From a virus, in the IMG/VR virus record IMGVR_UViG_3300022752_000314, positions 1 to 27,628 of that record: DNA of 27,628 nucleotides. The stretch is one strand, 5' to 3'. The notes beneath the pieces are model-generated. The model did not search any database. It was not told the DNA's origin and worked only from the letters and a program-made list of their open reading frames with translations. Shown here piece after piece: positions 2,128-27,628 of the stretch. Numbering within the stretch: position 1 is the stretch's first letter; each line of letters starts with the position of its first letter. Both the position numbers and the translations under genes were made by a program.

Positions 2128-2141
2128 GCCTGGAGGCCGCT

Positions 2142-2335: not shown

Positions 2336-2344
2336 TGCTAAAAT
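2336..2344 (+). promoter_or_regulatory. Extended -10 promoter candidate; likely leaderless mRNA
   Basis: TGC followed by TAAAAT forms an extended -10 element with no clear -35 (the upstream hexamer is A-rich). Transcription would start near 2351, three bases before the ATG at 2354. No Shine-Dalgarno sequence lies in the preceding 20 bases, so the message is probably leaderless, a mode common in Actinobacteria. Confidence 0.5.
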
Positions 2345-2353
2345 AAATACATT

Positions 2354-2875: not shown

Positions 2876-2877
2876 AA

Positions 2878-3554: not shown

Positions 3555-3570
3555 CAGTAGGAGAATAACT

Positions 3571-11800: not shown

Positions 11801-12235
11801 AAAATTTCTCACAACTTTGTGGACTCTAACTATGGAAACATTGGTTTCACTATGAATGGAGACTACTTAGACGCTGAAGACATTATGTCTTTGATATCTG
11901 CCAATGAACTAGGTGCTGCTTCACCAAATTATGCTGGTCCTTATATTGGTAAATACGGTGTGGCTGCTGGTGCTCAGGTTGCTTTAGGTCAGAGCCCATT
12001 CTCTCACGGTGAACTTCTAAGTACCTTATTTGAGTCCCTACTTGGTGGTGGCTTGAGTGGTATGTTCTCAACTTATATGAACCCTAAAAGAGTGCTGTCT
12101 GGAACTAACCCAGACGGTACCCCAAAATATATATCTATGGACTCTAGCGTTTTTTCTGAGGGAATGATGCCTTTTGGAGTTAGTATGATTGTATTGCTAA
12201 ATGAATTAGCAAAGCAGAAGTTAGGAATAGCATAA
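5870..12235 (+). CDS. Giant multidomain head protein: two ADP-ribosyltransferase folds and an HExxH protease-like domain
   Basis: The protein has 2121 residues. The N-terminal ~200 residues are unassigned. Residues 203-232 form a basic helix with QRRDR, GRFA and MGGG, followed by a small beta domain ending in GTGIYSVPADKV; this module recurs in the 4242-residue protein. The first ADP-ribosyltransferase fold is at about 880-985: R888 in FYRG, SSTA at 912-915 and a lone catalytic-type E957 in GNEVILPRNT, with Gly at the first acid position. The second, at about 1302-1420, has R1312 in LYRG, STS at 1346-1348 and E1386-K-E1388, the complete signature. Residues 1443-1486 look like a charged coiled coil. 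HELLH at 1943-1947 marks a zinc metalloprotease-like domain. The start ATG has only a weak ribosome site, suggesting coupling to the Dps-like gene. T4 Alt is a known injected ADP-ribosyltransferase; the same role here is inference. Confidence 0.85.
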   Translation: MSEQEDSEFFDPVSEINKLLSDERPALPSIYKKIEKLDVVGEGKAIVASANAKALPTRRIGKFEMLEVLERSLNRTVLNLANPGERVFTALRELSDFVNMATTGAQPKIANAHRDLLPVGHPLSTREHNFSQEEVAQFHAEWMSADPRIAEEFRPLVASAYRAPEASLEREYVIAKLETTSANEVPRDVILGLTAGIDPYGGGNSFLARSMRARAQRRDRRGRFAWMGGGARVWLGKALKGISTLFRFAGYDSKTDTFDLEIFNHPTLGTGIYSVPADKVEAIKAILPDSVNLGAPKPTLVSKNILVDPATLVKKEAPTGWEKISSKDGVDVFRSADGWIATRYANSASAPNEPSITRVRGANDDKSINPDLPVYHLAKGSNDGTVVDKPFAVTQSWGDTQALLARYDKKMAPKEEQPKATLEGTSQEFIDGWTKGIYQVAKSDNQNPYLIEKEDTANGKPSFTDPSGRYIAVKLATVVSPNWGPDANGIKERSDSLTRAQVLDSGKPIHTFDGAQKWDGNVENLYRLERVKSDGRREVLGFYQDPEDIEKDTEIPPSEDKPQDFYESVIADTLQWGGNTIDFVDGNSPQDGYIIAHEPDVLKQDGTIGKREEIYTPEQFTDPVEGPKILREFALKNSDKLTQQGFYLGTWLDTVDVTDENGKVIDQREMVFLDVSEYEKDFDKAFDKAEARGELAYYGVSEGKSFYVKDEKHRQETLRKTPILDLEENSRLKQAYEDAKKNYNQWWYANKDEYNAIAKKGLIQAVPDEQGRYMPNPRLEQENKELYDLYLAKYNAQVAYSDYQANYLRSIFEMSPSEFGLPRRDPGAENYGLSQDDLKIRDRYVADDVQTIARNKNLRDGGEPTQEDLKLDYLIKQSSLKDDTVFYRGIALDPELVKEMSPGDSFYNRAFSSTALNKEVALIYVNGRQPHTPDKVKTVFRMLCPKGMNAIHVGGNEVILPRNTKMRILRKSEVDGITYFDVDVEPQTKEEIDARIQGRVPKPEESKDGSSSSELPGNDGGGTDGLGDQGPFPVNYGPKPAGQEQTPRVTDPNNAIWFSTPKDLLGVSLNDIIGEATAINQYNDPEKHLAKRLKAHVAQSLTKKLKDLDNEEFLKMAVSLRMFFKDDLYWGDDSLKDISTIPVLFHDKDGTTTYYTTIRGLVLRGPMGDILPKDLIDRLNTERISREDAKEVVRLMNKSDKHPDLNKIVFINKDNEEYMGILRESVASNLVAQWASTSNGDNAMSLAIQDLAFKEFGVDKPAEWRVNDETLGKISEIKNNHENFLRKFLRAQYDLTQEYFQKKGISKITLYRGVKNFTAHDMTKSTFPTSKGFTASIRLRPLSAWSTSEGIAIGFSRGADSKIFRKEFDVKDIFAFPGTGVGCYDEKEMVVLGGVTDSVDIADYSPVDTPSVSYNSPEPQAITYKEDQPQIQVNNAPISNAPKKMSNTERKRLERAQKLAEKEAAPSSEEVKQQMEQARQDIAQVAQAIPESVDSLFDSSNPLNILNARNITNDITGSRTNRNNLSKDDLLSQKLLFMEPTKEWYDLLDRIEKSGEPFAKQIISRIKQKHDRLIKKIEQNTIEERQAQVEYDNTLKELHNVVNTLVNNALANPNDVPGLNVITVPLMAKLDTYFNGNPNNEVLVRNPYLLGMALMSLYATNDPRIAQANPDFDANEVSKVITDLVNKFRAAYTRYGSNASGSAFAVPDRTALVKEVQRIYIENLFGGLNPTNPHSTIAMLAKLSHDSSLDPILPKDSIKVISSKSKDLRSSMDRLTLKRAETISNKKKLAKELSDTTKEVLSESGLEFNHGVKLSANDITWTGVHDFQFGSNPVTKKLEFQPTQMPDYIKNKTASELRNVNGIVDVVNEAIQSYPKPVALALKQFLIDNKSSFSFFTGSRGVTALVNPDELYKAHDIGDLSNVIKKLGISGYNKDEAVETTVHELLHLIVNGIFRNQMNSIAWAKQSKETNIEGPNGKISHNFVDSNYGNIGFTMNGDYLDAEDIMSLISANELGAASPNYAGPYIGKYGVAAGAQVALGQSPFSHGELLSTLFESLLGGGLSGMFSTYMNPKRVLSGTNPDGTPKYISMDSSVFSEGMMPFGVSMIVLLNELAKQKLGIA

Positions 12236-12777: not shown

Positions 12778-12806
12778 TTGACGCATCACTACACTGTTTT
12801 TATACA
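12778..12806 (+). promoter_or_regulatory. Sigma70-type promoter for the 4242-residue protein gene
   Basis: TTGACG (12778-12783), a 17-bp spacer and TATACA (12801-12806) lie in the 92-bp gap before the giant gene, whose ATG at 12848 is preceded by AGGAGAA. The expected 5' leader is about 35 nt. The -10 lies inside an inverted repeat, so a repressor may act here. Confidence 0.65.
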
Positions 12807-12813
12807 GTAAGTG
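12787..12813. promoter_or_regulatory. Inverted repeat over the -10 box, possible operator
   Basis: ACTGT (12793-12797) and ACAGT (12804-12808) are separated by 6 bp and extended, with small offsets, by CACT (12787-12790) and AGTG (12810-12813). The symmetry spans the -10 hexamer. It could bind a dimeric regulator or form a hairpin; there is no T-run after it, so it is not a terminator. Confidence 0.45.
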
Positions 12814-12847
12814 GTTCCCCTTCTAACCAGTTCCAGGAGAATTTTTA

Positions 12848-15800
12848 ATGACCTACGCCTTCGGCATTTACTTTGAAGATGATGACAACCTAGGACTGGT
12901 GGCGGCAGGTAATCGCTGGACTTCTGGTGGAAACTCTGCTCTGGCCCGTCGTCTTCGTGTTGCTATGCAACGCCGTGACCGTTATGGTCGCTGGGCTGAA
13001 ATGGGTGGTGGAATCTCTTTCCCTGGCCGTCTACCAGATGGCAGTGTAAGTAAGTTCGTTGGTCGCTATGTCGGTCCTGCTGAGCGTCAAGACTATATGC
13101 GTGTCTATGTAACAGACGGCAGACGACCTGGAATCTATGAAGTTCCTTGTAAGGTTGCTACTGTAGCAAAGGCTCTTCTAAAAGAAGGCGACCTAAAGAA
13201 CGCTGGTGTAAACCTAGATGTCAATGGTAAGACTGTAGGTGAAGTTCTTGATAAGGACATCGAGTTTGTCGACCAAATGTGGAAAGGCAACAAGCCTAGC
13301 GACTTTGAACTCGATATGGCTCGTGGAAAAGTATCTCCAACAGAGAAGAAGGCAATTGTAAAGGCTCGCCTAAAGGCACCAGCCCACAAGTCATACAATA
13401 TTGTTGATGAAAAAGGCGTTCGCATTGACAAAGACGAAGTTCCGTCTACTCCAGAAGTAAAGAAGCCAAGTAAAAAGGCTAAGCCAGCCGAAGTATTCCC
13501 AATTCCAGATTTGTCTAAGTTAGATGATAAGGAACGCAACCGTCGTGAGTGGTATGTAGATGCTAATGGTAAGCGTATCCCTGCTAACAAACTTACTGAA
13601 GCAGATAAAACTCCAGAGAACCGTCGTATCCGTGATTTGGATAACAACAGAGTTCTAGATGGCAATGGTCATCTTGTAGAGTTCAAGCCAACATCTAAGC
13701 CAGAAGCAAATCCAATTCCACAGGGTGAGTTCCACCCTGTCGTTGAGCCAGACGATGGTTTCTGGAATGCTAACAATGTAAAGCCAGAAGAAGTTCAGAA
13801 AGACATCACTGACCCTCAGGCAGCATACGATGCTCTATTTGATGGTGGATTCATTGAAGTATCTCCAGAAGTGGCATTGGCAGCAGTTGACATTGCTGCT
13901 AAAGATATGCCTTTCCTTGGTAGAGATGAAAACCCTCTATTCCAGTCAAAGCCTGATGACCCTAGATTTAGAGAGATTGCTAATATTTTGGCTTCTCTAC
14001 CGTCTGCTCAGGAGACAAGACTAAAGCGTGCTATCAACTTGGCTCTAATGAGCGAAGACAAAATCAACGCTCTAAAGGCCTTCCTAGACAACAATGTTGA
14101 AGAAGGAACTGGTCTATCACCAGAAGCAATGAAAGAACTTCACCGCAAGTTCCGTAACCTTGGTGTTGACATTACAAATATGCGTATCAAGGGTCAGGAT
14201 GCGTTCAGCAACGACAACCTTGGTGCTGAGCGTATCAATATGCCACAACTTGACGCAGCAGACCAAGCAGACTTCCTTGCTTACTGTAAGAAACTTGGCG
14301 TTGGATTCCACGAAGCCACCGCTACACCACAGCAACTTCACCCTATCCAAGCAGAAATGGATATGGGAGATGTTGGAAAGATTATGGCATCTTGGCTTAG
14401 CCCAGAACTTCGTAAGAAGTACGGTATGGATGACCAGTATCTATTTGTTACCAGAGATGGTTATGTTCTAGATGGACACCACAGATGGTCATCTGCTCTT
14501 CTTGCTGAAATGAAGAGCGGTCAGCCCATCAACCTAAAGGTAATGGTTCTAGATATGGACCACGAGAATGCCTTGAAGTTTGTAAACGAGTACAACGACC
14601 ATGTTGGTATTACTCGTCAAATGGTTGGCGGGAAGAATGTCGCTCAGCCACGCCCTGAAGCACAGAAAGCAGAACTACCTGCGTCTGAGCCAGTAAACCT
14701 AATTTTGAATAGGGCTCCTAAAAACCCTAATCAACCAAGTTCTGGTGCTAATGGACCAGATGGCTCACCTATTGAGTCTTGGCTTGATAGGCAGTTGGCA
14801 AATAACGGAGACCTCATTAAGGCTCAGTTTGCTGACAGACTTACCGAAGACAAGCCGAATGTGGCTGAACCTAGGTCTCCGCTACCGGGCTCAAAGACAG
14901 TTGTAGATAACCTACTAAAGTACAGAGATAGTCTTCGTGCTAGCCTAATTGACGCTTCTCTAGATGGCGACCAAGAACTATTCAAATTTAGATTTGAAAT
15001 CGCTAAGAGAGTTTCTAATCTTCTAAATCAGATTTATGACAACTATAGAAACGGTCACGACTACACCAGAGATACTGAAATTGCTCTTAGTACTAGCAAC
15101 CCTGATGAAAAACTAAAGGCTTTCAGAATCCTACCTAACACCATGGTCACCCATGTTGACAACAATGGTGTAAAAATTATTGACTCATTCGATGCTATAA
15201 CCATTGCAAAAAATGGTATGCCATTCGTAATTCGCTGGAAAAAGAGTGGTAGCAGTACCGCTTACAGAGTGGCGGCAGATGGAACCGTAGACTTCAATGC
15301 CCATGAAGGCGATTGGGCTTACGGTGGTGGTCTAGGTCACAATGGTAGCCAAGACTATAGAAGGGCTGCTGACGGTAAATTTGTTCCTAGTACAGCAGTT
15401 AGCGGTTCTGCATTTACTGACAAGAAAAGTCAAGCACTTGGTCTTATGAGTGGTCACATCTTCCTAACTCGTTGGGTACAAACTCAGTTTATGGAAAATG
15501 CTCGCTTAAGCCACAGCAGTACTTTGTATGCCCCTGGAACTTTTTATAGCAAAACTGTTTCTAAAGATATGCGTGACCACCACAGAAGTCAGGCAGATAA
15601 AGCAGTTCATCAAAATAACCCTAATGGAGATATCTTCAAAGTATTGAAGGCCATGGGTCTTGTAAATGGAACATATATTCCTTTTGATAGAAATGCTACC
15701 GATAACCAGCCAGGTGGTGGAGGTAGCAATAGCGGTGGTAATGGTTGGCTCAAAAGAATAACTCCATCAAACCAGAGTGGTGGAACTACCACTCAATCAG

Positions 15801-18800
15801 TACTGGACTCATTCTCTATAAATGATGCAGTTAGCCAGTATTACGAAACTTTTGCTAGAAAGAGTGAAGCAGATAAGCAGACAATTCTAGATGCTATGCC
15901 TGAAGTATTTAGAGAATACTTTACTGGGGCACCTTCTAGACCTGAATGGATGAAGTATCAAAACTTCGATGTTCAGTATGGAATGCTAGGCACTGTCTAC
16001 TCAGATGGTATGAAGAAGCAGGAAGCAATAGACTTCCTAGACAGAATTATTACTGGCCTACCTCAACTTCACAGGGCATTTGGAGCAAGAGAAGATTCTT
16101 CATCTGCCAGAATTGCTAAATTAACCGCACTAAAAGATGCTATCAATGCTCACCAGTGGGACCAAGCAAACAACAACTACAACAGACCTAAGCCTTTCAA
16201 CACAAACAGCATTAGAGTTATGGAATCTCCATTTGCTGGAAACTTCAAATTTGGTGACTGGACTGTTGAAAGAGACCTTAAGAGAGTTATAAACGAACTT
16301 CCGTTCACTCCTGGTGGAAAACCTGATGGTGCACCTGACCACTGGACAGAGAACCCTAGCGAACTAGAGCAACGATTTAGCCCAGAAACTCTTCTAGAAG
16401 TTCTTACCAATTCATTGAAGAACGATGGCGGAAAAGTGGCACACCTACCTGCTGATTCTTCAGGTAGAGACCCTATTGATGTCAACCCTACTGCCGTATA
16501 CAAAGCCCTAGAAAACCACGGTTTTGATACTGAGAAGATGCTTGCTGAAATTTATGATGACATAAATGGAAACAGTGCTAACTTGGATGCTCTACTAGCA
16601 AAGAGAAGCGACCTTGGAAACCTTAATGACATTATTGCTCAACTTGCTAGCGAAGTAGGAACCTTAGAAGAGCCTGTAGTATTCAGCCAAATCGGTGGAG
16701 ACTATGACCCTGCTAATGGTGGAGTTCTACAGTCTGACCTAATCAAACGCCACTGGGAAAATGTTGACGGTAACCCTGCTCTTGATTTGAAAGAACTAGA
16801 GGCGGTCAACGAGTCATACTATGACGCTAATAGAAATAGGTTGATTGACGGTAAAGCCTACACTCCTAAAGTTGCTAACAGACAGTTCTATACTGCTGGA
16901 GTTGCTGACAACCCTAAGATTATTGCTAGAAACTTCTCTCCTAGAGGTCTAAGCAATGCTTTGACTGACGCTATTCAAAATAGCAGAACAACCGTAAAAC
17001 TAAAATTCCCGAACGGTCAGGAATTAGAAGTAGAAAACGCAGCCATTAGAGATGCTCTACAGCATCAGGGCTACGATGTAAATAAACTACTTAGCGAAAT
17101 GTCTGGTATCAAGCCAGAACCTAAGAGACCAAGTTTCCTAACTGCTGAAACAAATCAGGCTGGCGATGAGGCTTACCAATGGAATGGAATCGGTTCATCT
17201 GTATTTGCAGACAATGTTCCAGTAATTCTTGAAAAAGGTTCAGCAGATAATCGTGCGACATTTAATGGAAATGTCTATGAAATTGGTTTGGCAAGTGGAA
17301 CTGATGGGGAGAGACAAACTTTCACCGCAAAACTTGCTAAAATTCAAAAAAATGCAGACGGTAAGTTTGAAGTTTGGGTAGCCAAAAAAGAAGACAACTT
17401 CGTTGGTGAGTTCAGTGGAGCCCCAGACGGTGTCTATCCTAATTTTGGAAATGCTTTGTACGATGTACAAAAGCATGCAATGTCGGAATTGAACCTGTCT
17501 CGTGGAACATCTATGCACGATAACTATGCCACTGAGCCTAGATTATCTACAAATCTAGATGAGCACTCAGTAATCAACAATGATTCTCCAGATGCTGTAG
17601 AAGTTGCTGGTATGACAATTTCTAGACCTGGCAATACTGGGACTACTCAAATATTTGAAAACAGCAATGGTATTCGCAGAATCAACAACACTCTGATTAC
17701 TGGAACTACTCGTGTATACAGTTTGAACTCAAACCCACTTGCTGGTGAAGACAGTCCACTAGAAAACCTAGTTAGACACACTACAGATGCTGATGGCAAT
17801 CAGATAAATACAGATGTATATAGCATCACCAAAGTATCTGACCCTAATCTAAACGATAAGTATGTTGTCCAACTGCTTGGTGGTAAAGACTCTTCTACTG
17901 GCTTAGAATTGCCACCTCAGAATCTAGTTTTAAGTGATTTAAATATTGCTAGAAGCATAGCAAGAAGACACGCATACATTACTGAAGGCAATGACCTAAA
18001 TGGCATAAATAATGACCGTGCTCAACTTTTGTCTAACATTAATTCAGTAGCACCTTCTGCTTCAGTAGAAAATATGCACATCGCTTCAGATACCAACTCT
18101 ACAGTTGCTGGTACTCCTATAAAACTTGCTGGTGGTGTAGAAGGTAAGTTGGTAGTTCAGGTCAAAAAGGGTGCTCACCCTGCTTGGCGTAGAGGTGTTC
18201 CAGACTCAGATAACAGATATGTTTACGCAACCGTAGATATCACTAACCCAGATGGTAGTGAAAAATATGGAAGTTATCAGATAGTTAGAACTGCTCTAAG
18301 AAGATGGACAATTCAACCTACCTTAAGTCCTATGATGTCTGGTGTACGAAACCCATTTGTGGGAAATTACCTACCTACATATAGCAACTACTACCACGAT
18401 AAGCAAGATGCTTTAAATTATCTAAAAAACACAGTCAACAGACAATTCTTAGGTCAAAACCCAGGCAACAAGTCTTTGTTCCCTGAAGAAAGAGTGGTAA
18501 ATGTTGCTAACCCTGCTCCTAATGCTTTAAACCCTGCTGTTGCACCTAGAGCATCAGAAAACTTCCTATCTGATGATAAGTTCTCGGACTTTGTTGCTCA
18601 GCGTGGTCAGGTACTTGACCTAACTGGAGCAGTACAGCAAGGCGGTATGGGTGGAGGTGCTTCTGGCTCTCTGAAATTTGAATTTAATGGTAAAAAATTC
18701 AAAATTAAATATGAAGGTGATGACAAAGCCAGACAAGAATCTTTTAACCACGCTATATACAAACTTGTAGGTATTCAAACTACTGAAGCATTGCTTGGTA

Positions 18801-21800
18801 CTGGTATCCCTAATTTAATTCCGCCTCGTGACCGTAACCTTGGGCCTGTGACCATAGTTCTAGCAGATGAATTTGAACCAAATATTGTTCCTGGTCGTGC
18901 TAATGGTCACATGAATGGTCAGGCAGTATTTAATGGAAGTTCATTCACAAAACCTGAGAATCAGCAAGCAATTGCCGATTTACAAGAGGGTCTACTAATG
19001 GATGTTCTTACTAATAATGGCGACATTATGGGTAACACTGGCAACACATTTATTGCTATTAGAAATGGTATTCGCCGTGGTGTCCGTTGTGACAATGGTT
19101 CTGGCGGTGTTTACGAAGCAATTGGAAATAGTCGTAGCGATGGATTCATTAATAGAGATGCTTCTGACAGACTGAAAAGTACTTTCGGTGATTTTATGGC
19201 TCGTGGAGTAGTCAAGGGAACTACCGATGACGGAAGTTTGAAGAGGGGGCTTACTCCAGACTCACTTAAGGCTATTGCTAGAAGAACCATTCTGCCACTA
19301 ACAGATGACAAGATTGATGCCTTAGTTCAGGGAATCATCACAAATGACCGTGATAAGAGAGACCTAGCACAGCACTTGAAGCGTCGCCGCCTTGAGATGC
19401 TGAACTATATGGGAATTGACCCTAACTCAGAGCCACCTCAGGGTGAATCAGCAAACATACCTAATGTTATTCCAGGTAATATTCCACCTAACTTGGCAGA
19501 CAACGGCTATGAATTTGTCTCTGACAATGCTAATGGCACACCAAGAATAAAGATGGCTGGTTCTGTAGATGCTAATGGAGTATTTAGACCTTCTCATTTT
19601 GATAACCTACCTACAGATGTAAAGGCTCAACTACGCTACGGTCAGTTATTACCAGAGAACCTACCATTTATCTCACATAACAGCGACCATCCTTCATTGG
19701 TAATTGACGGTGCTGGAATAGTCAGACCAATCGGTAAAAATGGTATGACTTCTATCTTTATCCGTAAGCGTAAAGCAGACGGTACTTATGAGTATCTTTA
19801 CATCAAGCAAGGTGAAAACGGAAACAAAAAAATCCTAGACACCAACAGACAGCAACTTATGCCAATCGTTCACAATAACGAGGATGGCTCAGACAAGTCT
19901 CTTGAAGAAATGTTGGCATCAGAAGGATTCTCTGGAATTCCTGTAGTTAGCAGTAAGGAAATGCGTCTTGCTATTCCTGGCTTGGGTCAAGACCACAGAA
20001 TTATTGTGGCTGATATTGGCAGTGAAGACATTTCTGGTGTTCTAAGTAGAGCAAATACAAATGGCGTAACTAGAGAAGCAATATGGAGACAAGTAGAGCG
20101 TCTAAAAACTAGACCTGAGTACTACTATAACCAGTTGAATGGCAACGACGACAAGAATTCTGTTGTCAACCAACTTCAGGAATGGGAAAGAACTTGGGCT
20201 TCATCACCATCTGCCGAGCCTAGTGCTGATGGCGGAGATATTGGCGGTAACGGAGATGGAAACGGTCCTACTGGCGGTAACGGTGGAGGCCCATCTGGTT
20301 CTAGTTCCGATACTTCTGGCCCTTCAGACGGTCCAGAGGGAGATGGCTGGAGAGCAACACGCTCCATGGCTTTCAGAGATGCAAATGGAAATGTTAATCG
20401 AAACAGCGGCGGTGTAGTATTCCAATCTCACCCTAATGGCGGAATTAGAGTATTTGACGACAGCAATAACGAAGTTCAAGGTGAGATTTTACCTACTTAC
20501 CACGGCCACTGGGTAGCCACATTTATGCCTAATGATATTGACAATGTCAATAGAGATAGAAGAAATGGTAGAGCAATCAAGGGTATCTTTGCTTCTAAGC
20601 AGGATGCTGCTAACTGGCTTGCTAAAAAGGTTTATGACAAGTATGGAGTTCCAGAGGGCGATGGCGGAAACCGTAGACCATTTAATGAAGGTGGTACTGG
20701 TGACTATAACCCTAACGCTGCTCCATATGTAGAAATTAAAAAGGGTTTCCTAAACCCTACTACCGAAAACCAGCGTAATTTGGCTAATCGTCTAGTTGAC
20801 CACAAACAAGCAACTCCTGAAGAGCGTGCTTTGTTCCGTGCTATGTTGACTCAGGATAACTTGACTGTTGGTGAAGTTGGATATGTAATCAATAAACTCA
20901 AGGATAGAGACGACAGAGATTCTGCCGAACTTGCTGAGTCAAGAAGAGTTCGTGACGAGGCTGCCGCTGCTAATCCAATTCAGCCTTCTACTCTTGAAAG
21001 AGTTATTGAGCCACCAGATGTTGTTCCAGTTATTGCTTGGAACCTAAGACCTGGTCATAGAATTCTTGGCAAGGTAAATGGAAATGTTGTATTTACTGCT
21101 CCAGGTGAAAACAACACTATCAATGTTGGTGTTGTAAAGGATGATGGAAAACTACATGTTTACAAGGTAAACCGTAGCACTGTTATTGCTTGTTCTAACC
21201 AGCAAGTTGCTCAAGCAACCACTAATGCTGTACCTACTCACCCTGTAATTCAACAGCGTAGAGCACAGGCAAGGCTTATTCAGGACCAAATCAAGGCCCT
21301 ATACCCTAACCACCGTGAACTTCCTAATGGAGATTTGATTGTTGGTCAGCGTGACCACAGACAGGCAGATGGCAGAGTATTCCGCTATGAAGCAGTAGTT
21401 CACAAACTAAAGTCTGATGAATTTATTAGTTATGTCCGTAAGCAACAGATTGATACTAATGGAAACCCTGTTGGTGAATCAAGGGCTGCTTATCTAACTG
21501 TTCCTGGACACTCTCCAAAGGCAGTAAAGGGAAGACTTGCTAGGGAAGTAATGAGTGTAATCAACTCAGCAAACCCAGCAAACGGGTTCAATCAGAAGCA
21601 ACACGAGCCAGAAGTTACTAATCCAGCGACTGGACTGCCACTACCAGCAAGTCTTGTAAACCAGAACGCTCAGTTCATTGGCACTACTGGAATTGAAAAA
21701 ACTGGAAACGCTACTAAAGATGCTTTGATTTCTTATGTACAAAATCTAGTTGCTAGAGGTATGGCTCACCCTGAAATTATTGAGCAAGTAATTGGTAAAA

Positions 21801-24800
21801 ACCAAAACATATTCTCTCGCCATCAAATGGATGACATCATCGAGCGTCTTGAGTGGAACAGACAGTTCCCTGGTACTAACGCTATTCCTTATGTATCTAA
21901 GGACAACAAGACTATCGTTCGTGTTGGAGACCGTGTAACTCACTATGACGCTAACGGTAATCCAATCCTTATGGACAATGGTCAGCCTAGAACTGGTGTT
22001 GTAACTGAGCGTAGACCTTACACTCTAAACCGCAAGCCAAACGGTGACTACGAATACACTGACCAACTGTATGTTCAATGGGACAACACTAATAGACCAC
22101 ATCAGGCTGCGGCTCGTCGTCTAGAAGTCAACAGAAGAGCAGACGGCACTCAGCCAGTTCCAGCAGTACAGGGACCAAACGAAGGCGGAGATAACAATCC
22201 TGCTATTCTCCCAATGCCTCTTCCTAAACCTAGAGCGGGACAACAACCTGCTGCCCCTGCCCCCGCAAATAATGAAAGTGGTATCAATCAATTAGTAGAT
22301 AGATACAACGAAAATAGAATCCCAACTGGGTTTACCTTAGCCCGTGATGGTGGATTTGGTCAATTAGGTAACGGTGACCCAATAAGTCTTAGAGACGAAG
22401 AGGTCGCTGCTCAGGGGCTTGCTGCTCTAAGAGGTCGTATCTATCAGGATGAAGATGGTGCTTTTGTAGTACAAAAGTGGGGAAACAACGGTGGATTTGT
22501 CTCTAAAGAAACATATCCAGATGTTATGACTGCTCTAGAAGTTCTTAGCCAGCACGCAACATCTTTAAGAAATGAAAAAGATGGTAATGGAACTTCTGAG
22601 CCAGAAACTAGCAGTCCATCTTCTTCTAGCCCATCCTCTCCTAATGGTGGAGATGGCGGTGGGGTTCCACCTACTAACCCACCTGCTGGTGGAGAAGGTG
22701 GAGCGTCAGAAGGTCCAGGACTAGATTTGAATATGGGTAGATGGAGACAAGGTTCCCCACCTGATGGTGTTGCTCCTCGCCCTGGCGATGGCGTAGTTCC
22801 AAAAGTAAATACATTCTGGGATGATGACCAGCCACCTACTCAGTACGATGTTGTCAGAGATGAAAACCGTACTAAGTTTGTTGGCCGTGCTGGACAAAAC
22901 CCTGGTGCAGAAGCATTTATTTATGTTGAAAAAACTCCTAATGGAAACTGGAGAGTAGTCGACCCTAGAGAAAGAGGAGATGCTCGATACAGTGCTGAAT
23001 ATGGAAACCGTAATATAGCAGAAGCAATTGCTGTCAATAAGATGGCTGGTCGTGAAGAATACAACAGACTAATTCTCAACCAAGATAATAGTGGTAGAAC
23101 TCCTAATGAGCCAGAAAATGCTCAGGAGCCTGTACTAGACCTTCCTTGGAATGATAAGAGAGTTGAAATTCAACCACAAGAAATTGGTGCTATCCGTAGT
23201 TTTGAACTTATCAATGATATGGGCAATGGAGGTTTAGAGCCTATAAAGGTTGAGATTGTGAGAGACCCTGCTAGTACTAGATTCCTTCCTGAAGGCATGG
23301 GGTATGAAGGCATTGAAGTTCAAAAGTACACTGCTGGCTGGGGAGTAGATGGTATAGCAAGCAACTCTGGTGAAGTAAAAATATTCGCAACTAGAGGTGA
23401 GGCTGAAGCAGCAGCGGTAAATAGCATGCTTAAATTCAACCAAGATGTAAAGAATGCTTATATAGCACAGCAAAATGCTCCTTCAGTTGCTAGAGAAGAT
23501 TCAGAATCTCCTACTAGCGGAAACTCTGACTCTGACTTAAGAGTTGGAGAGAACCGTGCTCCAGATGGAATGGTAGAAAACAGAGAAGCAAATGGAGACT
23601 TCACTGCTGATTTTGCTATTGGTCAGAATACTTTCCAAAGAGTTAGAAAGCCAGACGGCAATGCTGGTTATTACTACAAGGGCATAGAGATTGCTACTAT
23701 TGAAAAAAATCCTGATGGAACTTTCAATGTTAAAAACATTTGGGGAGCAGATGACAGTGATTTTGTAGTTGCAAACGATGAACGGTCTGCTCTAGTAAAG
23801 GCTCAGTCAATTATTTGGCACGCTAATCAAGACGGCAAGATTGACCAAATGAATCAATATATTGCTGATGGAAACATTGATGTAATAGAGCCGGGTACTA
23901 CAATCATTCCCCCTACTCCAGAACAGGGTCCTCAAATCACTACAGCAGTTCCAGCAACTCCGGGGCAGCCGAAGCAAGAATCAGTACCTGAGTTTGCTCC
24001 TCCAGGCTATAAAGCAAATGGACAAATGAATGTTGGAGGTGGAGTTGGTGGTCAGAATGACTTCCGTGATATCACTCCACAACCACAAGAAGGTGCTATT
24101 CTTCGTCAACATAATGCAAGAAACATTGGTGGAGATTACAACCCTGGCTTCTACTGGGAAAACCCAGATGGAACAGTGGCTGAATGGGACTCCAATCGTG
24201 ATGGTAAAAAATTCATGAGACCCACACCAATAAATCGTGAAGAACCAGATAACTCTGGTGTTCGTTACCAGCCTGGCGATGTATTTGACCCTAACCACAG
24301 ACCTGATAATGGCAACAACAACAACGGTGGCACACTACCTACTGGTCCATCAGACAATGGTGGCAACGGTGGAACTCCACCTGCTAATAACCCGCCAGCA
24401 GGGCCAGCCCCCGTTGCTCCAGAAGCAGAACCTGTTCAAGAGCCTCAGGGTAAGCCTAGAGTAAATAGGATTCAGCCTGGTGACCGTTATGTGAAGCAAA
24501 ACAATAGATTACTTCCAGATAAAAATGGTAAGTACACAGGTTTTGATGTATACGATGCTAGAACTAAAAAACTTATCGCTAGAGCAGAAACTAAAGAAAT
24601 TGCTGACGATATTGCCGCTGGTAGAAGAGACCTAAACGGTAAGTTGATTGATTACACTACTCCACAGAAGCCTGGAATCCAAAGAGTTCCTAGACCAGAA
24701 GGATATAGTAAAAATATAACTCCTGACAGTAAAGATAGGATGTTCAACAAAGATTTCTATATTGAAAATCTAAAGGACCCTAACTCACCTGTAGTTAGAT

Positions 24801-25576
24801 TGAACTATGACGAGGCTAATGCTCAGTATGTTGGACAGTTGTATGCCAATAAGGAAGATGCTAAAAACCAAAGAAATCCTATTGGAGAATCCTTTGCTAA
24901 CTCTGCTCAAATTCGTGCTGAAGATACTGCTCACGCAGCAATTCAAAAAGAATTAGATAAGAAAGTCAAACCAGCAGTTCCAGTGGCAGAAGCAACTAGA
25001 ACCGATATGGGCGATGGAGTATTCTCAGTTGCTGGTACTAACGGCGAGTATGGTATTGCTGTAAGAGGGTCTGATGGTAAGTGGTCTACTAGAACTCACG
25101 AGACTTCTAGAGATGCTATGAATAACCGAAACCCTATTGATAGCGGTACCTACGATACCGAGCAGGAAGCCGAGGCCGCCATTCGCAAGACTATTGCTGA
25201 CCGTGATGCTCAAAGAAACGCAGCCAATATTCTTCAATGGCAGTCTGGGTCAGATGGTAAGCAATATCTTGGACTAGACGGAGTTCCTGGAGTAGATGAA
25301 GAAACTTCACCTGTCTATGGCATAAGCCCTAGTCCTTTCGGTGGCTGGGCACTTGCTCGCTGGGACTCAAAGGCTGCTAAGGATGCTGGAGCACAACCAA
25401 GTTCAATTATGGCTCAACCAGATGAGGAGTCTGCTAAGAATGATGCTCTAAAGCAGATGAACGATTTCTTGCGTAATTTGACTGGTCAGAACCCAACTGC
25501 TCCTAATGGAAATTCTTCAGAAAGTCCGTCAGGTGGTCAGTCTCCGTTTATAATTCCGTTCAATCCTAATGCCTAG
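12848..25576 (+). CDS. Giant 4242-residue polyvalent head-region protein with ParB-like and kinase-like domains
   Basis: This 12.7 kb gene has AGGAGAA 8 nt before its ATG. Residues 26-55 repeat the basic QRRDR / GRWA / MGGG module of the 2121-residue protein, with a beta domain after it (PGIYEVPCKV). A ParB-like domain lies at about 480-580, centred on DGHHRW at 542-547. Residues 1177-1237 and 1363-1420 are an internal duplication. A kinase-like fold spans about 1915-2200: Gly-rich loop near 1932, D2059 and N2063/N2066 in the catalytic loop, D2082-N-G as metal site. Helical and SH3-like segments follow (about 2630-3100), then many small beta-beta-alpha modules to the end. Gly/Ser/Pro/Asn linkers separate blocks at about 2455-2498, 3245-3310 and 3815-3870. 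No tape-measure-like helical repeats or membrane segments are seen. The position, after the portal and before the maturation-type gene, suggests a virion or injected protein; this is inference. Confidence 0.85.
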   Translation: MTYAFGIYFEDDDNLGLVAAGNRWTSGGNSALARRLRVAMQRRDRYGRWAEMGGGISFPGRLPDGSVSKFVGRYVGPAERQDYMRVYVTDGRRPGIYEVPCKVATVAKALLKEGDLKNAGVNLDVNGKTVGEVLDKDIEFVDQMWKGNKPSDFELDMARGKVSPTEKKAIVKARLKAPAHKSYNIVDEKGVRIDKDEVPSTPEVKKPSKKAKPAEVFPIPDLSKLDDKERNRREWYVDANGKRIPANKLTEADKTPENRRIRDLDNNRVLDGNGHLVEFKPTSKPEANPIPQGEFHPVVEPDDGFWNANNVKPEEVQKDITDPQAAYDALFDGGFIEVSPEVALAAVDIAAKDMPFLGRDENPLFQSKPDDPRFREIANILASLPSAQETRLKRAINLALMSEDKINALKAFLDNNVEEGTGLSPEAMKELHRKFRNLGVDITNMRIKGQDAFSNDNLGAERINMPQLDAADQADFLAYCKKLGVGFHEATATPQQLHPIQAEMDMGDVGKIMASWLSPELRKKYGMDDQYLFVTRDGYVLDGHHRWSSALLAEMKSGQPINLKVMVLDMDHENALKFVNEYNDHVGITRQMVGGKNVAQPRPEAQKAELPASEPVNLILNRAPKNPNQPSSGANGPDGSPIESWLDRQLANNGDLIKAQFADRLTEDKPNVAEPRSPLPGSKTVVDNLLKYRDSLRASLIDASLDGDQELFKFRFEIAKRVSNLLNQIYDNYRNGHDYTRDTEIALSTSNPDEKLKAFRILPNTMVTHVDNNGVKIIDSFDAITIAKNGMPFVIRWKKSGSSTAYRVAADGTVDFNAHEGDWAYGGGLGHNGSQDYRRAADGKFVPSTAVSGSAFTDKKSQALGLMSGHIFLTRWVQTQFMENARLSHSSTLYAPGTFYSKTVSKDMRDHHRSQADKAVHQNNPNGDIFKVLKAMGLVNGTYIPFDRNATDNQPGGGGSNSGGNGWLKRITPSNQSGGTTTQSVLDSFSINDAVSQYYETFARKSEADKQTILDAMPEVFREYFTGAPSRPEWMKYQNFDVQYGMLGTVYSDGMKKQEAIDFLDRIITGLPQLHRAFGAREDSSSARIAKLTALKDAINAHQWDQANNNYNRPKPFNTNSIRVMESPFAGNFKFGDWTVERDLKRVINELPFTPGGKPDGAPDHWTENPSELEQRFSPETLLEVLTNSLKNDGGKVAHLPADSSGRDPIDVNPTAVYKALENHGFDTEKMLAEIYDDINGNSANLDALLAKRSDLGNLNDIIAQLASEVGTLEEPVVFSQIGGDYDPANGGVLQSDLIKRHWENVDGNPALDLKELEAVNESYYDANRNRLIDGKAYTPKVANRQFYTAGVADNPKIIARNFSPRGLSNALTDAIQNSRTTVKLKFPNGQELEVENAAIRDALQHQGYDVNKLLSEMSGIKPEPKRPSFLTAETNQAGDEAYQWNGIGSSVFADNVPVILEKGSADNRATFNGNVYEIGLASGTDGERQTFTAKLAKIQKNADGKFEVWVAKKEDNFVGEFSGAPDGVYPNFGNALYDVQKHAMSELNLSRGTSMHDNYATEPRLSTNLDEHSVINNDSPDAVEVAGMTISRPGNTGTTQIFENSNGIRRINNTLITGTTRVYSLNSNPLAGEDSPLENLVRHTTDADGNQINTDVYSITKVSDPNLNDKYVVQLLGGKDSSTGLELPPQNLVLSDLNIARSIARRHAYITEGNDLNGINNDRAQLLSNINSVAPSASVENMHIASDTNSTVAGTPIKLAGGVEGKLVVQVKKGAHPAWRRGVPDSDNRYVYATVDITNPDGSEKYGSYQIVRTALRRWTIQPTLSPMMSGVRNPFVGNYLPTYSNYYHDKQDALNYLKNTVNRQFLGQNPGNKSLFPEERVVNVANPAPNALNPAVAPRASENFLSDDKFSDFVAQRGQVLDLTGAVQQGGMGGGASGSLKFEFNGKKFKIKYEGDDKARQESFNHAIYKLVGIQTTEALLGTGIPNLIPPRDRNLGPVTIVLADEFEPNIVPGRANGHMNGQAVFNGSSFTKPENQQAIADLQEGLLMDVLTNNGDIMGNTGNTFIAIRNGIRRGVRCDNGSGGVYEAIGNSRSDGFINRDASDRLKSTFGDFMARGVVKGTTDDGSLKRGLTPDSLKAIARRTILPLTDDKIDALVQGIITNDRDKRDLAQHLKRRRLEMLNYMGIDPNSEPPQGESANIPNVIPGNIPPNLADNGYEFVSDNANGTPRIKMAGSVDANGVFRPSHFDNLPTDVKAQLRYGQLLPENLPFISHNSDHPSLVIDGAGIVRPIGKNGMTSIFIRKRKADGTYEYLYIKQGENGNKKILDTNRQQLMPIVHNNEDGSDKSLEEMLASEGFSGIPVVSSKEMRLAIPGLGQDHRIIVADIGSEDISGVLSRANTNGVTREAIWRQVERLKTRPEYYYNQLNGNDDKNSVVNQLQEWERTWASSPSAEPSADGGDIGGNGDGNGPTGGNGGGPSGSSSDTSGPSDGPEGDGWRATRSMAFRDANGNVNRNSGGVVFQSHPNGGIRVFDDSNNEVQGEILPTYHGHWVATFMPNDIDNVNRDRRNGRAIKGIFASKQDAANWLAKKVYDKYGVPEGDGGNRRPFNEGGTGDYNPNAAPYVEIKKGFLNPTTENQRNLANRLVDHKQATPEERALFRAMLTQDNLTVGEVGYVINKLKDRDDRDSAELAESRRVRDEAAAANPIQPSTLERVIEPPDVVPVIAWNLRPGHRILGKVNGNVVFTAPGENNTINVGVVKDDGKLHVYKVNRSTVIACSNQQVAQATTNAVPTHPVIQQRRAQARLIQDQIKALYPNHRELPNGDLIVGQRDHRQADGRVFRYEAVVHKLKSDEFISYVRKQQIDTNGNPVGESRAAYLTVPGHSPKAVKGRLAREVMSVINSANPANGFNQKQHEPEVTNPATGLPLPASLVNQNAQFIGTTGIEKTGNATKDALISYVQNLVARGMAHPEIIEQVIGKNQNIFSRHQMDDIIERLEWNRQFPGTNAIPYVSKDNKTIVRVGDRVTHYDANGNPILMDNGQPRTGVVTERRPYTLNRKPNGDYEYTDQLYVQWDNTNRPHQAAARRLEVNRRADGTQPVPAVQGPNEGGDNNPAILPMPLPKPRAGQQPAAPAPANNESGINQLVDRYNENRIPTGFTLARDGGFGQLGNGDPISLRDEEVAAQGLAALRGRIYQDEDGAFVVQKWGNNGGFVSKETYPDVMTALEVLSQHATSLRNEKDGNGTSEPETSSPSSSSPSSPNGGDGGGVPPTNPPAGGEGGASEGPGLDLNMGRWRQGSPPDGVAPRPGDGVVPKVNTFWDDDQPPTQYDVVRDENRTKFVGRAGQNPGAEAFIYVEKTPNGNWRVVDPRERGDARYSAEYGNRNIAEAIAVNKMAGREEYNRLILNQDNSGRTPNEPENAQEPVLDLPWNDKRVEIQPQEIGAIRSFELINDMGNGGLEPIKVEIVRDPASTRFLPEGMGYEGIEVQKYTAGWGVDGIASNSGEVKIFATRGEAEAAAVNSMLKFNQDVKNAYIAQQNAPSVAREDSESPTSGNSDSDLRVGENRAPDGMVENREANGDFTADFAIGQNTFQRVRKPDGNAGYYYKGIEIATIEKNPDGTFNVKNIWGADDSDFVVANDERSALVKAQSIIWHANQDGKIDQMNQYIADGNIDVIEPGTTIIPPTPEQGPQITTAVPATPGQPKQESVPEFAPPGYKANGQMNVGGGVGGQNDFRDITPQPQEGAILRQHNARNIGGDYNPGFYWENPDGTVAEWDSNRDGKKFMRPTPINREEPDNSGVRYQPGDVFDPNHRPDNGNNNNGGTLPTGPSDNGGNGGTPPANNPPAGPAPVAPEAEPVQEPQGKPRVNRIQPGDRYVKQNNRLLPDKNGKYTGFDVYDARTKKLIARAETKEIADDIAAGRRDLNGKLIDYTTPQKPGIQRVPRPEGYSKNITPDSKDRMFNKDFYIENLKDPNSPVVRLNYDEANAQYVGQLYANKEDAKNQRNPIGESFANSAQIRAEDTAHAAIQKELDKKVKPAVPVAEATRTDMGDGVFSVAGTNGEYGIAVRGSDGKWSTRTHETSRDAMNNRNPIDSGTYDTEQEAEAAIRKTIADRDAQRNAANILQWQSGSDGKQYLGLDGVPGVDEETSPVYGISPSPFGGWALARWDSKAAKDAGAQPSSIMAQPDEESAKNDALKQMNDFLRNLTGQNPTAPNGNSSESPSGGQSPFIIPFNPNA
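16376..16558 (+). repeat. Internal protein duplication, copy 1 (residues 1177-1237)
   Basis: This copy starts FSPETLLEVLTNSLKN and ends KALENHGFDTEKMLAEI. It matches copy 2 at F-S-P, L, A/V-L-T, N, the hydrophobic strand pair, AL, HG/QG, (F/Y)D and KLL/KML-(A/S)E, without notable DNA identity. Confidence 0.7.
16934..17107 (+). repeat. Internal protein duplication, copy 2 (residues 1363-1420)
   Basis: This copy starts FSPRGLSNALTDAIQN and ends ALQHQGYDVNKLLSEM. Its strand region reads VKLKFPNGQELEVEN. It is about 186 residues after copy 1 and represents an old duplication of a ~60-residue alpha-beta-alpha unit. Confidence 0.7.
22280..25530 (+). repeat. C-terminal array of divergent beta-beta-alpha modules (residues ~3145-4227)
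   Basis: At least six segments share a pattern: a strand pair with an aromatic (for example NGNWRVVDP, DGAFVVQKW, DGTFNVKNI, DGKWSTRTH, GGWALARWD), a loop, then a helix starting with T/E/D and rich in Ala (RGEAEAAAVNSM, TEQEAEAAIRK, DERSALVKAQS, DEESAKNDAL). Similar units occur earlier, near residues 2501-2600. Sequence identity is low, so this is a call on pattern only. Gly/Pro linkers separate some of the units. Confidence 0.5.
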
Positions 25577-25652: not shown

Positions 25653-26339
25653 ATGCCTCAAAACCCTGAGTTCTCTTTGAATTCCGACACGCTTGGAGTT
25701 GTCTATAAAGACATTGGCGTACTGGTTGGCTACACATCTGAAAATGCCGAGCAACCTAGCGAAACTCACGCAATCTTGGGTGCTTATTATGAGCCATCTG
25801 GTAATTACAAGGGATTGTATTTTGTACTGCCAGAAGGTTCAATCAAGTACTTTGATGTAGATACGGCAAAACTTGCTACTGAAAATGATGGCTCTTACAT
25901 TACTTTTCAGGCAGACGGCAACCTTTGGTTGATTAGGGATATTTCTGAAGACGATGGTACTTGGATTTCTAAGTACAAAATGGAACTTCCAGTTGAAGTA
26001 CTACAGCAACTGATTGTTGGTCGTTCTAGAGAAGCATTGAATAAGTATCTTGGAGTGTCTATCCCAGAAGGCACCCCTGAGTTTGAAGACTTGACTGCTT
26101 ATTTCTCTGACGCTTCAAAGAGTATTTTTGCTTTGAACTACTTATCTTCCAATGGCACTTACACCAGAATAAATTATTCTTGGGAAAAGAGCGATACTTC
26201 ATACGATTACTATGAAGACCTTTCTGTGGCTGAAATTGACCCAGATAAAGCAAGCGAACTTATAGATAAGTACGATGAAGCAGATGGACTATTCCCTGTA
26301 AAAGATATCCTAAAAACCTATGAAGTGAGTGGTAAATAA
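25653..26339 (+). CDS. Acidic protein of unknown function next to the last head gene
   Basis: The protein has 228 residues; TTTGGAG lies about 9 nt before the ATG. It is acidic and rich in Tyr, Ser and Asp. The first half looks like beta strands (GLYFVLPEGSIKYFDVD; ITFQADGNLWLIRDI), followed by a helix (VEVLQQLIVGRSREALNKYL) and a second beta part. The first half loosely resembles the small beta modules of the giant protein. No catalytic motif is visible. The stop overlaps the next ATG by one base, so it is coupled to the following gene. It could be a chaperone or minor head component; I cannot decide. Confidence 0.65.
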   Translation: MPQNPEFSLNSDTLGVVYKDIGVLVGYTSENAEQPSETHAILGAYYEPSGNYKGLYFVLPEGSIKYFDVDTAKLATENDGSYITFQADGNLWLIRDISEDDGTWISKYKMELPVEVLQQLIVGRSREALNKYLGVSIPEGTPEFEDLTAYFSDASKSIFALNYLSSNGTYTRINYSWEKSDTSYDYYEDLSVAEIDPDKASELIDKYDEADGLFPVKDILKTYEVSGK

Positions 26340-27628
26340 TGGAATCTAAATTTTTAGGTCTAGATAAAAATCAAGTTGCTTACTACGGTAACTCGAATTA
26401 CTATGTAGCAATTGACACTAACTTCAATGCTGTAGTTGAGCAGGGTGAAGTAGACACTTCAGTATCAGAAAAAATTGGCAGTCTTATCAAAAATGTTGCC
26501 CTACCGATTGAGACTATCGAACTAGCAATTTCGGCTTTATCTTTGATAACCCCAGACACTAATTCTTTATTGGCTTCTGCTCGTTTATACAGCATACCAA
26601 GTGGTGTCAGATTAGAAGCAAAGAAGGCTCTTGATTGGCACAAAGAGCACCACCGTGGTGGAACTCCTGTCGGTCTAAACACTGCTCGTACTCTTGCTCG
26701 TGGTGGACAGATTGGTATTGAAAAGGTACGCCACATTGCTAAATACTTCCCTCGCCACGAAGTAGATAAAAAAGGCAAAGGCTGGGAACCTGGCGAAGAT
26801 AATTTTCCAAGCAATGGAAGAATTGCCTGGGCACTCTGGGGTGGAGATGCTGCTTGGCGTTGGGCTAAGGCAATTGTCGAGCGTGAAAATGCTCACGCTC
26901 TAAAGGCTGATGCTGGATATTCAGAAAACATCGGTGCTGATATCTCTCCTTTCGAAGATGCTCAAGGATTAGACGATAGCATTGCTCCAGACTTTTTGGC
27001 TCGTGTTCGCCTTGATGGTTCTGGTATTGACCGTATTTACAAGGTTGATTTAGATGGACAAGTCTATGCGTGGGATGACGGTACTTGGGATGACCTTGGA
27101 CACGCAGAAAACGGAGATATTTGGACTTACGATAAGGCTCTTGATGACCCTTATGATTTAGTCGAAAAAACACATGTTCAGATTGACCCTGAATCAGCAA
27201 TTATTATTTGTGCTCGTCTAAATACCAATCCTTTCAAAAATATTTCAATTGAAGAGATTGACGAAGATGAAGCCCGTATGGCAGCAGATGCTGCTTCTGA
27301 AGAAGATTGGGACTTTATTGATGTAGTCATTACTGCTGCTGGTGAAGGCGGTGGAGCAACAAGCAGAGATGGAAACTACACTCCTCAAGAGCGTTCACAA
27401 AATGCTTCTAGACAAGTTCGTGATGGTGGCGGAAGATTTGCTACCCAAGGTAAGAATGTTTCTGTAAAGGGTCAGGGTAATGGAACTATTACCAATGTTG
27501 ACCAAAATTCTGGAAATGTTACTGTAAAACTTGCTAATGGTCAGTCAGTAGTTGTACCAGCAAAAGACACTAAGCAGACTGAAGAGCAAGATGTTGCTTC
27601 CCCGCTTGGTCCATACAATCAGGCTGAC
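26339..27628 (+). CDS. Phage head-operon protein with RGGT/LWGGD domain and GRFA motif (3' truncated)
   Basis: 430 codons are visible and the frame is open to the window end. The ATG overlaps the previous TAA by one base. Residues about 80-182 form a domain seen in many phage head-maturation protease and minor head proteins: PSGVRLEAKKALDWH, HHRGGTPVG, ARTLARGG, the helix KYFPRHEVDKKG, and IAWALWGGDAAWRWA. The middle is acidic (DEDEARMAADAASEEDWDF). Residues 361-371 carry RDGGGRFATQG, after which NGTITNV / GNVTVKLANGQ / VVVPAKD looks like a small SH3-type barrel. This resembles the N-terminal module of the two giant proteins. Protease residues are not visible in the present part. The function may be scaffold/maturation or another packaged effector. 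Confidence 0.75.
   Translation, partial: MESKFLGLDKNQVAYYGNSNYYVAIDTNFNAVVEQGEVDTSVSEKIGSLIKNVALPIETIELAISALSLITPDTNSLLASARLYSIPSGVRLEAKKALDWHKEHHRGGTPVGLNTARTLARGGQIGIEKVRHIAKYFPRHEVDKKGKGWEPGEDNFPSNGRIAWALWGGDAAWRWAKAIVERENAHALKADAGYSENIGADISPFEDAQGLDDSIAPDFLARVRLDGSGIDRIYKVDLDGQVYAWDDGTWDDLGHAENGDIWTYDKALDDPYDLVEKTHVQIDPESAIIICARLNTNPFKNISIEEIDEDEARMAADAASEEDWDFIDVVITAAGEGGGATSRDGNYTPQERSQNASRQVRDGGGRFATQGKNVSVKGQGNGTITNVDQNSGNVTVKLANGQSVVVPAKDTKQTEEQDVASPLGPYNQAD

What the first reader, a model, noticed from the sequence alone, without database searches (positions are those of the whole stretch)
12848..25576. A single 12.7 kb phage gene for a 4242-residue multidomain protein
The protein is not a tape measure: it lies in the head section, is rich in beta modules and linkers, and includes ParB-like and kinase-like folds. 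Its size is exceptional for a phage gene and costs a large share of coding capacity, so it must be important, perhaps as a multi-effector polyprotein.
Basis: partly seen in the sequence, partly recalled or inferred. Interest (0 to 1): 0.75.

Follow-up and report, generated by a model that had tools for sequence, protein, structure and literature searches.

The report
Giant phage effector with shared tag
This is a very long virus-of-bacteria gene whose protein is probably packed inside the virus head and injected into the bacterium as a string of enzymes, and a small domain near its start, shared with sister giants and with the head-maturation protease, may be the label that gets such proteins into the head.

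Summary
The ORF is real: 12848-25576 is one open frame of 4242 codons with an AGGAG ribosome-binding site, lying in the head operon of an actinophage-like genome. A 135-kb relative has a 4227-aa orthologue at the same place, under purifying selection along its length, so an assembly error is out. It is not a tape measure: relatives have a separate one. The ParB-like fold (aa ~464-592) and the kinase-like fold (aa ~1921-2190) are supported; the kinase is closest to CtkA/CotH/HipA and keeps its catalytic residues. The best reading is a virion-packaged, injected polyvalent effector protein, a known kind (Iyer 2017; phage P1 DarB is the tested model). Its size is not exceptional in its family: related frames reach 7,671 aa. 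The new part is a ~90-aa domain near the N terminus (QRRDRxGRFAxMGGG plus an SH3/Tudor-like barrel). It marks giant ORFs downstream of the portal gene in 77 of 77 relatives with a portal in view, occurs in two or three co-encoded giants, and its core recurs in the capsid maturation-protease polyprotein. I propose that it is a capsid-targeting module. Packaging, injection and the tag's role are inferred, not shown.

The parts
12848..25576 (+). giant gene, 4242 aa (called W_4242 in the report)
   Evidence: open frame and translation; full-length orthologue 4227 aa; dN/dS < 1
12835..12839 (+). AGGAG ribosome-binding site
   Evidence: sequence
12923..13198 (+). N-terminal tag domain, aa ~26-117: QRRDRYGRWAEMGGG then SH3/Tudor-like barrel
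   Evidence: alignments, AlphaFold2 strands 55-107, VIA-align Z about 5 to Tudor/SH3-like chains
14237..14623 (+). ParB/sulfiredoxin-fold domain, aa ~464-592, with DGHHR motif (R546)
   Evidence: PHROG 2859 6e-21 over aa 434-594; Noc/ParB Z 6.8, Srx Z 6.0; BFVD ParB/Sulfiredoxin E 1.9e-8
16304..16558 (+). module aa 1153-1237, duplicated at aa 1352-1418 and found in many sister giants
   Evidence: HMM self-match iE 2e-5; 43 hit rows in related ORFs
16901..17101 (+). second copy of that module, aa 1352-1418
18629..19444 (+). CtkA/CotH/HipA-like kinase domain, aa ~1928-2199; K1954, E1964, D2059, D2082 invariant in 16 aligned rows
20351..25477 (+). C-terminal half: small beta/alpha modules joined by G/N/P-rich linkers, aa ~2502-4210; repeats only weakly supported
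   Evidence: composition; profile pairs; orthologue alignment with indels at linkers
5870..12235 (+). second giant gene, 2121 aa
   Evidence: relatives of 2823 and 2039 aa at the same place
6440..6733 (+). tag domain in the second giant, aa 191-288
8366..8806 (+). ADP-ribosyltransferase-like domain, aa 833-979 (below Pfam's curated cut-off)
   Evidence: PF03496 E 2e-4
9740..10054 (+). second ART-like domain (DRAT-like), aa 1291-1395 (below cut-off)
   Evidence: PF07357 E 0.0037; orthologue 6e-4
11696..11710 (+). HELLH zincin motif, aa 1943-1947, HExxH kept in all three relatives aligned
26339..27628 (+). N-terminal 430 aa of the capsid maturation-protease polyprotein (runs off the window)
   Evidence: 50% identical to DSL-LC01 protein annotated capsid maturation protease
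27359..27496 (+). tag-like core (RDGGGRFATQG) in that polyprotein, aa 341-386
3571..5397 (+). portal protein
   Evidence: phrog_776 1.5e-102
5397..5867 (+). ferritin/Dps-like protein
   Evidence: PF00210 2.5e-14
1..672 (+). terminase large subunit, nuclease part
   Evidence: PF17289 5e-8

Best explanation
W_4242 is a polyvalent effector protein: made late, packed into the procapsid, and injected with the DNA, where its separate folded domains act on the host or on incoming DNA. Shown here by sequence and model: one long conserved frame, head-operon position, a tag domain, a ParB/Srx-fold domain, and a CtkA/HipA-type kinase with all catalytic residues kept. Inferred: the kinase phosphorylates host proteins; the ParB-like domain is a nucleotide-regulated nuclease or nucleotide sensor; the C-terminal beta modules are binding or spacer units; the protein enters the head through the N-terminal tag, which the phage also puts on its second giant and on its maturation-protease polyprotein; the maturation protease, or the second giant's HELLH zincin, may trim it.
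For: Position between portal and maturation protease. Orthologues and purifying selection. ParB fold. Kinase fold and invariant K/E/D/D. Sister tag-bearing giants carry established polyvalent domains: of 14 scanned, RNase_T in 10, UvrD in 9, MPTase-PolyVal in 2, ArdC-N in 2, ADPrib_exo_Tox in 2, GNAT in 1. Cassette shuffling: the ParB module sits in a different, type-II giant in L063 and is missing from the same-position giants of L013 and L014. Tag-bearing ORFs lie downstream of the portal in 77 of 77 loci with a portal in view. Published precedents: polyvalent proteins near portal/terminase (PMC5512222); P1 DarB, 250 kDa, whose N-terminal 30 residues send a reporter into the capsid (PMC9024508 section 31); Burro gp27, a >4,400-aa actinophage protein judged virion-associated (PMC7302621 section 20).
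Against: No proteomics or injection data exist for this phage or for any tag-bearing relative that I found. No Pfam, NCBIfam or PADLOC model matches W_4242 itself. Most of its length (for example aa 640-1150 and 2240-4242) has no assigned activity. The ParB match to solved structures is weak (no Foldseek hit at E <= 0.001; Z 6.8). The kinase is not the truncated type described for polyvalent proteins.
Confidence: 0.72

Rival explanations
1. It is an internal structural or scaffolding protein of the head (DNA organiser or capsid stabiliser); the enzyme-like folds are decayed and serve only as bulk.
For: Head-operon position; tag shared with the maturation-protease polyprotein; long stretches without recognised domains.
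Against: Catalytic K, E, D, D of the kinase are invariant in 16 diverged rows; DGHHR is kept in W, L004, L005, L008 and L063; domain content differs between orthologous giants, which suits effectors better than structure.
Confidence: 0.14
2. It is made in the infected cell as a late host-takeover protein but never packaged.
For: No virion data; position alone does not show packaging.
Against: Late genes act too late for host takeover; sister proteins carry ArdC-N and MPTase-PolyVal, typical of proteins that enter with DNA (PMC5512222).
Confidence: 0.08
3. It is a genome-ejection channel or a virion RNA polymerase such as that of phage N4.
For: Both are very large head-stored proteins.
Against: Pfam finds no RNA-polymerase domain in it; the annotated relatives have minor tail, tape-measure and tail-chaperone genes, so a long tail, not a podovirus; modular, linker-rich sequence.
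Confidence: 0.04
4. Tail tape measure, or an artefact of assembly.
For: Length alone.
Against: Separate tape measures in DSL-LC01 and Pumpernickel; full-length orthologue on an independent contig; selection along the whole frame.
Confidence: 0.02

Closest known systems
Polyvalent proteins of phages (Iyer et al. 2017, PMC5512222)
   Same: Several unrelated enzyme folds in one chain, in phage late genes beside portal/terminase; sister tag-bearing giants carry MPTase-PolyVal and ArdC-N.
   Different: Full-length CtkA/HipA-type kinase instead of the C-lobe-less kinases described there; far larger (to 7,671 aa); a family-wide N-terminal tag also present in the maturation protease; R-S-E type ART models match (ADPrib_exo_Tox), whereas that paper names HYD2-type ARTs.
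Phage P1 DarB/DdrB antirestriction head proteins (PMC9024508, PMC5512222)
   Same: Very large head proteins; N-terminal capsid-targeting signal; DdrB has a ParB-like domain.
   Different: P1's signal is under 30 residues and BLAST found no consensus among Dar proteins; here a ~90-aa folded domain is plainly shared.
Microbacterium phage Burro gp27 and cluster EK >4,400-aa proteins (PMC7302621 section 20)
   Same: Actinophage giants next to the portal gene, judged virion-associated and perhaps processed.
   Different: No tag match in those records in the phage-collection search; those are podoviruses; no recognised effector folds reported.
Helicobacter pylori CtkA kinase (PDB 3akk) and HipA/HipT/CotH kinases
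   Same: Fold over the whole domain, Z 15.8, rmsd 3.6 over 225 residues.
   Different: 15% identity; embedded in a phage giant; substrate unknown.
ParB-bearing giant 'structural protein' of Pseudomonas phage Epa33/F116 group
   Same: tblastn match over the ParB region in an 11.4-kb annotated gene.
   Different: 27.6% identity over that region only; the window's tag was not matched in these records.

Membership tests
Polyvalent proteins | two or more domains of disparate activity in one polypeptide | tested here: met
   ParB/Srx-fold and CtkA-like kinase domains in one frame, by model and profile; activities themselves not assayed
Polyvalent proteins | encoded among late/virion genes of a portal-terminase phage | tested here: met
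   terminase, portal, maturation protease around it
Polyvalent proteins | carries hub domains such as MPTase-PolyVal or ArdC-N | tested here: inconclusive
   not in W_4242 (Pfam finds none); MPTase-PolyVal in 2 of 14 and ArdC-N in 2 of 14 sister tag-bearing giants; HExxH in the neighbouring giant
Polyvalent proteins | packaged and injected with the DNA | not testable with these tools
   needs virion proteomics and injection assay
Polyvalent-type protein kinase (Iyer 2017) | loss of the whole C-terminal kinase subdomain | tested here: not met
   model aligns to CtkA over both lobes, model residues 22-291
DdrB-like ParB domain | ParB/Srx fold with active-site arginine | tested here: met
   fold and DGHHR motif; that R546 is the active-site arginine is inferred
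DdrB-like ParB domain | Asp/Asn at the end of strand 2 and the extra helix with a conserved tyrosine | not tested
   the published alignment was not available here
CtkA/HipA/CotH kinase fold | fold plus Lys, Glu, catalytic Asp and metal-binding Asp | tested here: met
   assignment of the four residues to these roles is inferred from position
Tape measure protein | gene between tail chaperones and minor tail proteins, only length ruler | tested here: not met
   separate annotated tape measures in DSL-LC01 and Pumpernickel
MuF-type polymorphic toxin | MuF domain at the N terminus | tested here: not met
   Pfam scan to E 0.1 finds none in either giant
Capsid-targeting sequence (T4/P1 type) | N-terminal or near-N-terminal element common to packaged cargo | tested here: inconclusive
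   tag starts at aa <=40 in 19 and at aa 120-205 in 36 of 58 nonredundant ORFs with a 5' end, so a common near-N-terminal element is present; that these proteins are packaged cargo is inferred
Capsid-targeting sequence (T4/P1 type) | sufficient to send a reporter into the head | not testable with these tools
   needs a tag-reporter packaging assay

The most novel reading that the evidence does not exclude
The RDxxGRF/SH3-like tag is a transferable capsid-import module of a large actinophage group: the same folded address label is placed on the maturation-protease polyprotein and on one to three giant, freely recombining effector chains of up to about 7,000 residues, so that the assembling procapsid loads any tagged cargo and injects it into the host.
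Probability: 0.35. Interest if true: 0.75.

Novelty: new variant of a known kind. Interest (0 to 1): 0.52.

Why it matters
How phages choose which very large proteins to load into the head is open: in P1 a targeting signal was shown, but BLAST found no consensus shared among the Dar proteins (PMC9024508). Here a conserved, recognisable domain is shared by candidate cargo and by the maturation protease across a widespread phage group with cultured members (Microbacterium phages), so the question can be tested directly by fusing the tag to a reporter. If true it gives a sequence handle for finding injected effectors and a possible protein-delivery device for actinobacteria.

Tried and rejected
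Rejected: tape measure; assembly artefact; defence-system component (PADLOC: no match in either giant).

The tag as the general head-protease cleavage site: the motif is absent from the three major capsid proteins read (DSL-LC01, Pumpernickel, L005), so I do not claim it as the cleavage site; cleavage at the tag in giants stays open.

C-terminal beta modules as clear repeats: of 66 pairs of 12 hand-picked modules, 3 exceed probability 20 (best 47.9) against 0 of 66 with shuffled columns; two names I tried were not found in the sequence and were dropped. Only weak.

Search of 84,980 bacterial and archaeal species genomes for the tag: 30 stretches matched the pattern, none was a relative. This pattern search can miss distant copies, so it only suggests that the tag is rare in cellular genomes. 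Profile search of the kinase against PDB sequences gave no kinase; only the fold search did.

Circularity told: the loci were chosen because they hold the tag, so the 37 motif hits in tag ORFs are by construction; the independent part is the 11 hits that lie in maturation-protease ORFs and the absence of hits in any other ORF of those 29 loci (0.48 expected by composition for the whole set). Loci were oriented on the match, so strand is not evidence. Many loci are near-duplicates (107 tag ORFs, 60 at 90% identity).

Papers: PMC5512222 abstract and sections 6, 8, 9, 10, 15, 32; PMC9024508 passages and section 31; PMC7302621 passages and section 20; PMC10611076, PMC7824862 passages; PMC12810830 outline and abstract; all others only as search listings. 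That the tag is not described in print rests in one open-access library and on 'hypothetical protein' labels; it may be named elsewhere.

Full report
Observation. The window holds one frame of 4242 codons at 12848-25576, with AGGAG eight bases before its ATG. Upstream on the same strand lie the nuclease part of the large terminase, a DUF1360 membrane protein, the portal, a ferritin/Dps-like protein and a second giant of 2121 aa. Downstream lie a 228-aa protein and the start of a protein 50% identical to the one annotated 'capsid maturation protease' in Actinomycetia phage DSL-LC01. The large-terminase part is 80% and the portal 67% identical to those of DSL-LC01, a genome assembled from lake-water metagenome and assigned to actinobacterial hosts by prediction (PMC10611076, passages).

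Is it real? A contig of 135,069 bases has a 4227-aa orthologue in the same place and another contig has its first 2229 residues. Across the frame dN is 0.37 and dS 1.32 against the 4227-aa orthologue, with dN below dS in each of 15 segments (one segment has saturated dS); the first 600 residues are the most conserved. An assembly error or a chance frame is excluded as far as sequence can do it.

Not a tape measure. DSL-LC01 and Microbacterium phage Pumpernickel both have the giant between portal and capsid genes (3289 and 2235 aa) and a separate annotated tape measure after the tail chaperones.

Domains. No Pfam, NCBIfam or PADLOC model matches the 4242-aa protein. PHROG 2859 matches aa 434-594 and, with another part of the same profile, the maturation-protease protein at 26339, so the two domains sit in one family elsewhere. 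AlphaFold2 on aa 1-640 with 47 rows (mean pLDDT 74) gives a ParB/sulfiredoxin fold: Noc/ParB chains at Z 6.8 (rmsd 3.5 over 98 residues) and sulfiredoxin at Z 6.0, ParB/Sulfiredoxin phage models in BFVD at E 1.9e-8; Foldseek against PDB alone gave nothing at E <= 0.001. AlphaFold2 on aa 1900-2240 with 16 rows (mean pLDDT 79) gives a kinase whose best match is CtkA of Helicobacter pylori (Foldseek E 3.4e-6; Z 15.8, rmsd 3.6 over 225 residues), then CotH 13.6, PI4KII and HipA/HipT about 12-13. Lys1954, Glu1964, Asp2059 and Asp2082 are invariant in all 16 rows, which suggests an active enzyme; their roles are inferred from position. A module at aa 1153-1237 is duplicated at 1352-1418 and common in sister giants. 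The C-terminal 1,700 residues look like small beta/alpha units between linkers rich in G, N, P and S, but the case for repeats is weak.

The second giant (5870-12235) has two ADP-ribosyltransferase-like regions, both below Pfam's cut-offs, and an HExxH motif near its end kept in all three relatives. Its relatives at the same place are 2823 and 2039 aa long, gaining or losing whole regions in the middle.

The tag. Residues 26-117 of the 4242-aa protein are related to residues 191-288 of the 2121-aa protein, and to copies in DSL-LC01 (two proteins) and Pumpernickel. A scan of 2.9 million viral contigs with this alignment gave 259 pattern matches, 197 relatives, 80 loci kept. In these and the earlier loci 107 ORFs carry it, 60 after removing near-copies. 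The consensus is GGNSxxxRSxRAxxQRRDRxGRFAxMGGG followed by a five-strand barrel that resembles SH3/Tudor domains only weakly (Z about 5). A portal gene is in view in 77 of 86 loci, and in 77 of 77 the first tag ORF starts within 2.5 kb of its end. The tag begins at residue 40 or before in 19, and at 120-205 in 36, of 58 nonredundant ORFs with a 5' end; the other three begin at 329-352. Two of these three match the DSL-LC01 maturation-protease protein D_603 and the third matches its D_851. Eighteen loci show two or three strong tag ORFs. Frames with a tag reach 7,671 aa and 14 of 33 records exceed 4242.

The tag core also occurs in the maturation-protease polyprotein. In one search, 12 weaker matches lie in frames of 612-1746 aa. 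All 12 are that polyprotein: eight checked and four (DSL-LC01, Pumpernickel, G009, G030). Of 48 RDxxG[RKQ][FW] motifs in 214,016 residues of 29 loci, 37 are in tag ORFs (by construction), 11 in maturation-protease ORFs and none elsewhere; 0.48 are expected from composition. The motif is not in the three major capsid proteins read.

Sister cargo. Of 14 long tag ORFs scanned, 10 match RNase_T, 9 UvrD helicase, 2 MPTase-PolyVal, 2 ArdC-N, 2 ADPrib_exo_Tox and 1 GNAT. The kinase profile matches 35 ORF rows among the loci, 18 distinct domains aligned. The ParB module has moved: it is in the second-giant type in L063 and is absent from the same-place giants of L013 and L014.

How it most likely works. 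The protein is made with the virion proteins, enters the procapsid (inferred: by the tag), stays there with the genome and passes into the cell, where kinase, ParB-like and other domains act at once (inferred from the polyvalent-protein model, PMC5512222). Phage P1 DarB is the tested model for the first step: its N-terminal 30 residues carry a reporter into the head, and its authors found no shared consensus among Dar proteins by BLAST (PMC9024508). Burro gp27 shows that an actinophage giant beside the portal can be in the virion, at about 250 kDa, perhaps processed (PMC7302621).

Verdict. A new variant of polyvalent effector proteins. Known: the kind, the ParB and ART themes, giant actinophage genes. 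New here: the family-wide tag shared with the maturation protease, the full CtkA-type kinase, and sizes beyond 7,000 residues. Packaging, injection and each enzyme activity remain untested.

Noticed in passing
window 2007-2129: Array of short TAAGT-type direct repeats (42-base unit, 98% matches) inside a noncoding stretch 1315-2353 between the terminase/phosphatase genes and a helix-turn-helix gene; could be a binding-site array.
   Followed up: no
window 715-1314, minus strand: Dual-specificity phosphatase gene (DSPc 4.5e-11) on the opposite strand inside the head operon.
   Followed up: no
window 5397-5867: Ferritin/Dps-like protein between portal and giants; a related ORF follows the portal directly in 38 of 77 loci with a portal, of 157-168 aa in 15 and of 367-442 aa in 23. 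Might be packaged to protect DNA.
   Followed up: partly
L094:4619-5188, L095 and L098, and others: A further RDxxGKF motif (QPRDAKGKFRxVLARxKxxLG) in the last module of the maturation-protease polyprotein, just before the capsid gene.
   Followed up: partly
L015, L021, L040 and others: Tag-bearing giants with a DnaQ-like exonuclease and a UvrD helicase in one chain.
   Followed up: no
L091 (Pseudomonas phage Epa33, record 46547-57946): An 11.4-kb gene annotated 'structural protein 5' holds a ParB region related to the window's.
   Followed up: no
window 12778-12816: Inverted repeat ACTGT..ACAGT just before the giant gene's ribosome-binding site (seen); could be a promoter operator or hairpin.
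   Followed up: no
G022:C1:41049, G024:C1:46523, G025:C1:28286: Second tag-bearing frames of 6,023-6,256 aa behind a first giant in the same contig.
   Followed up: no
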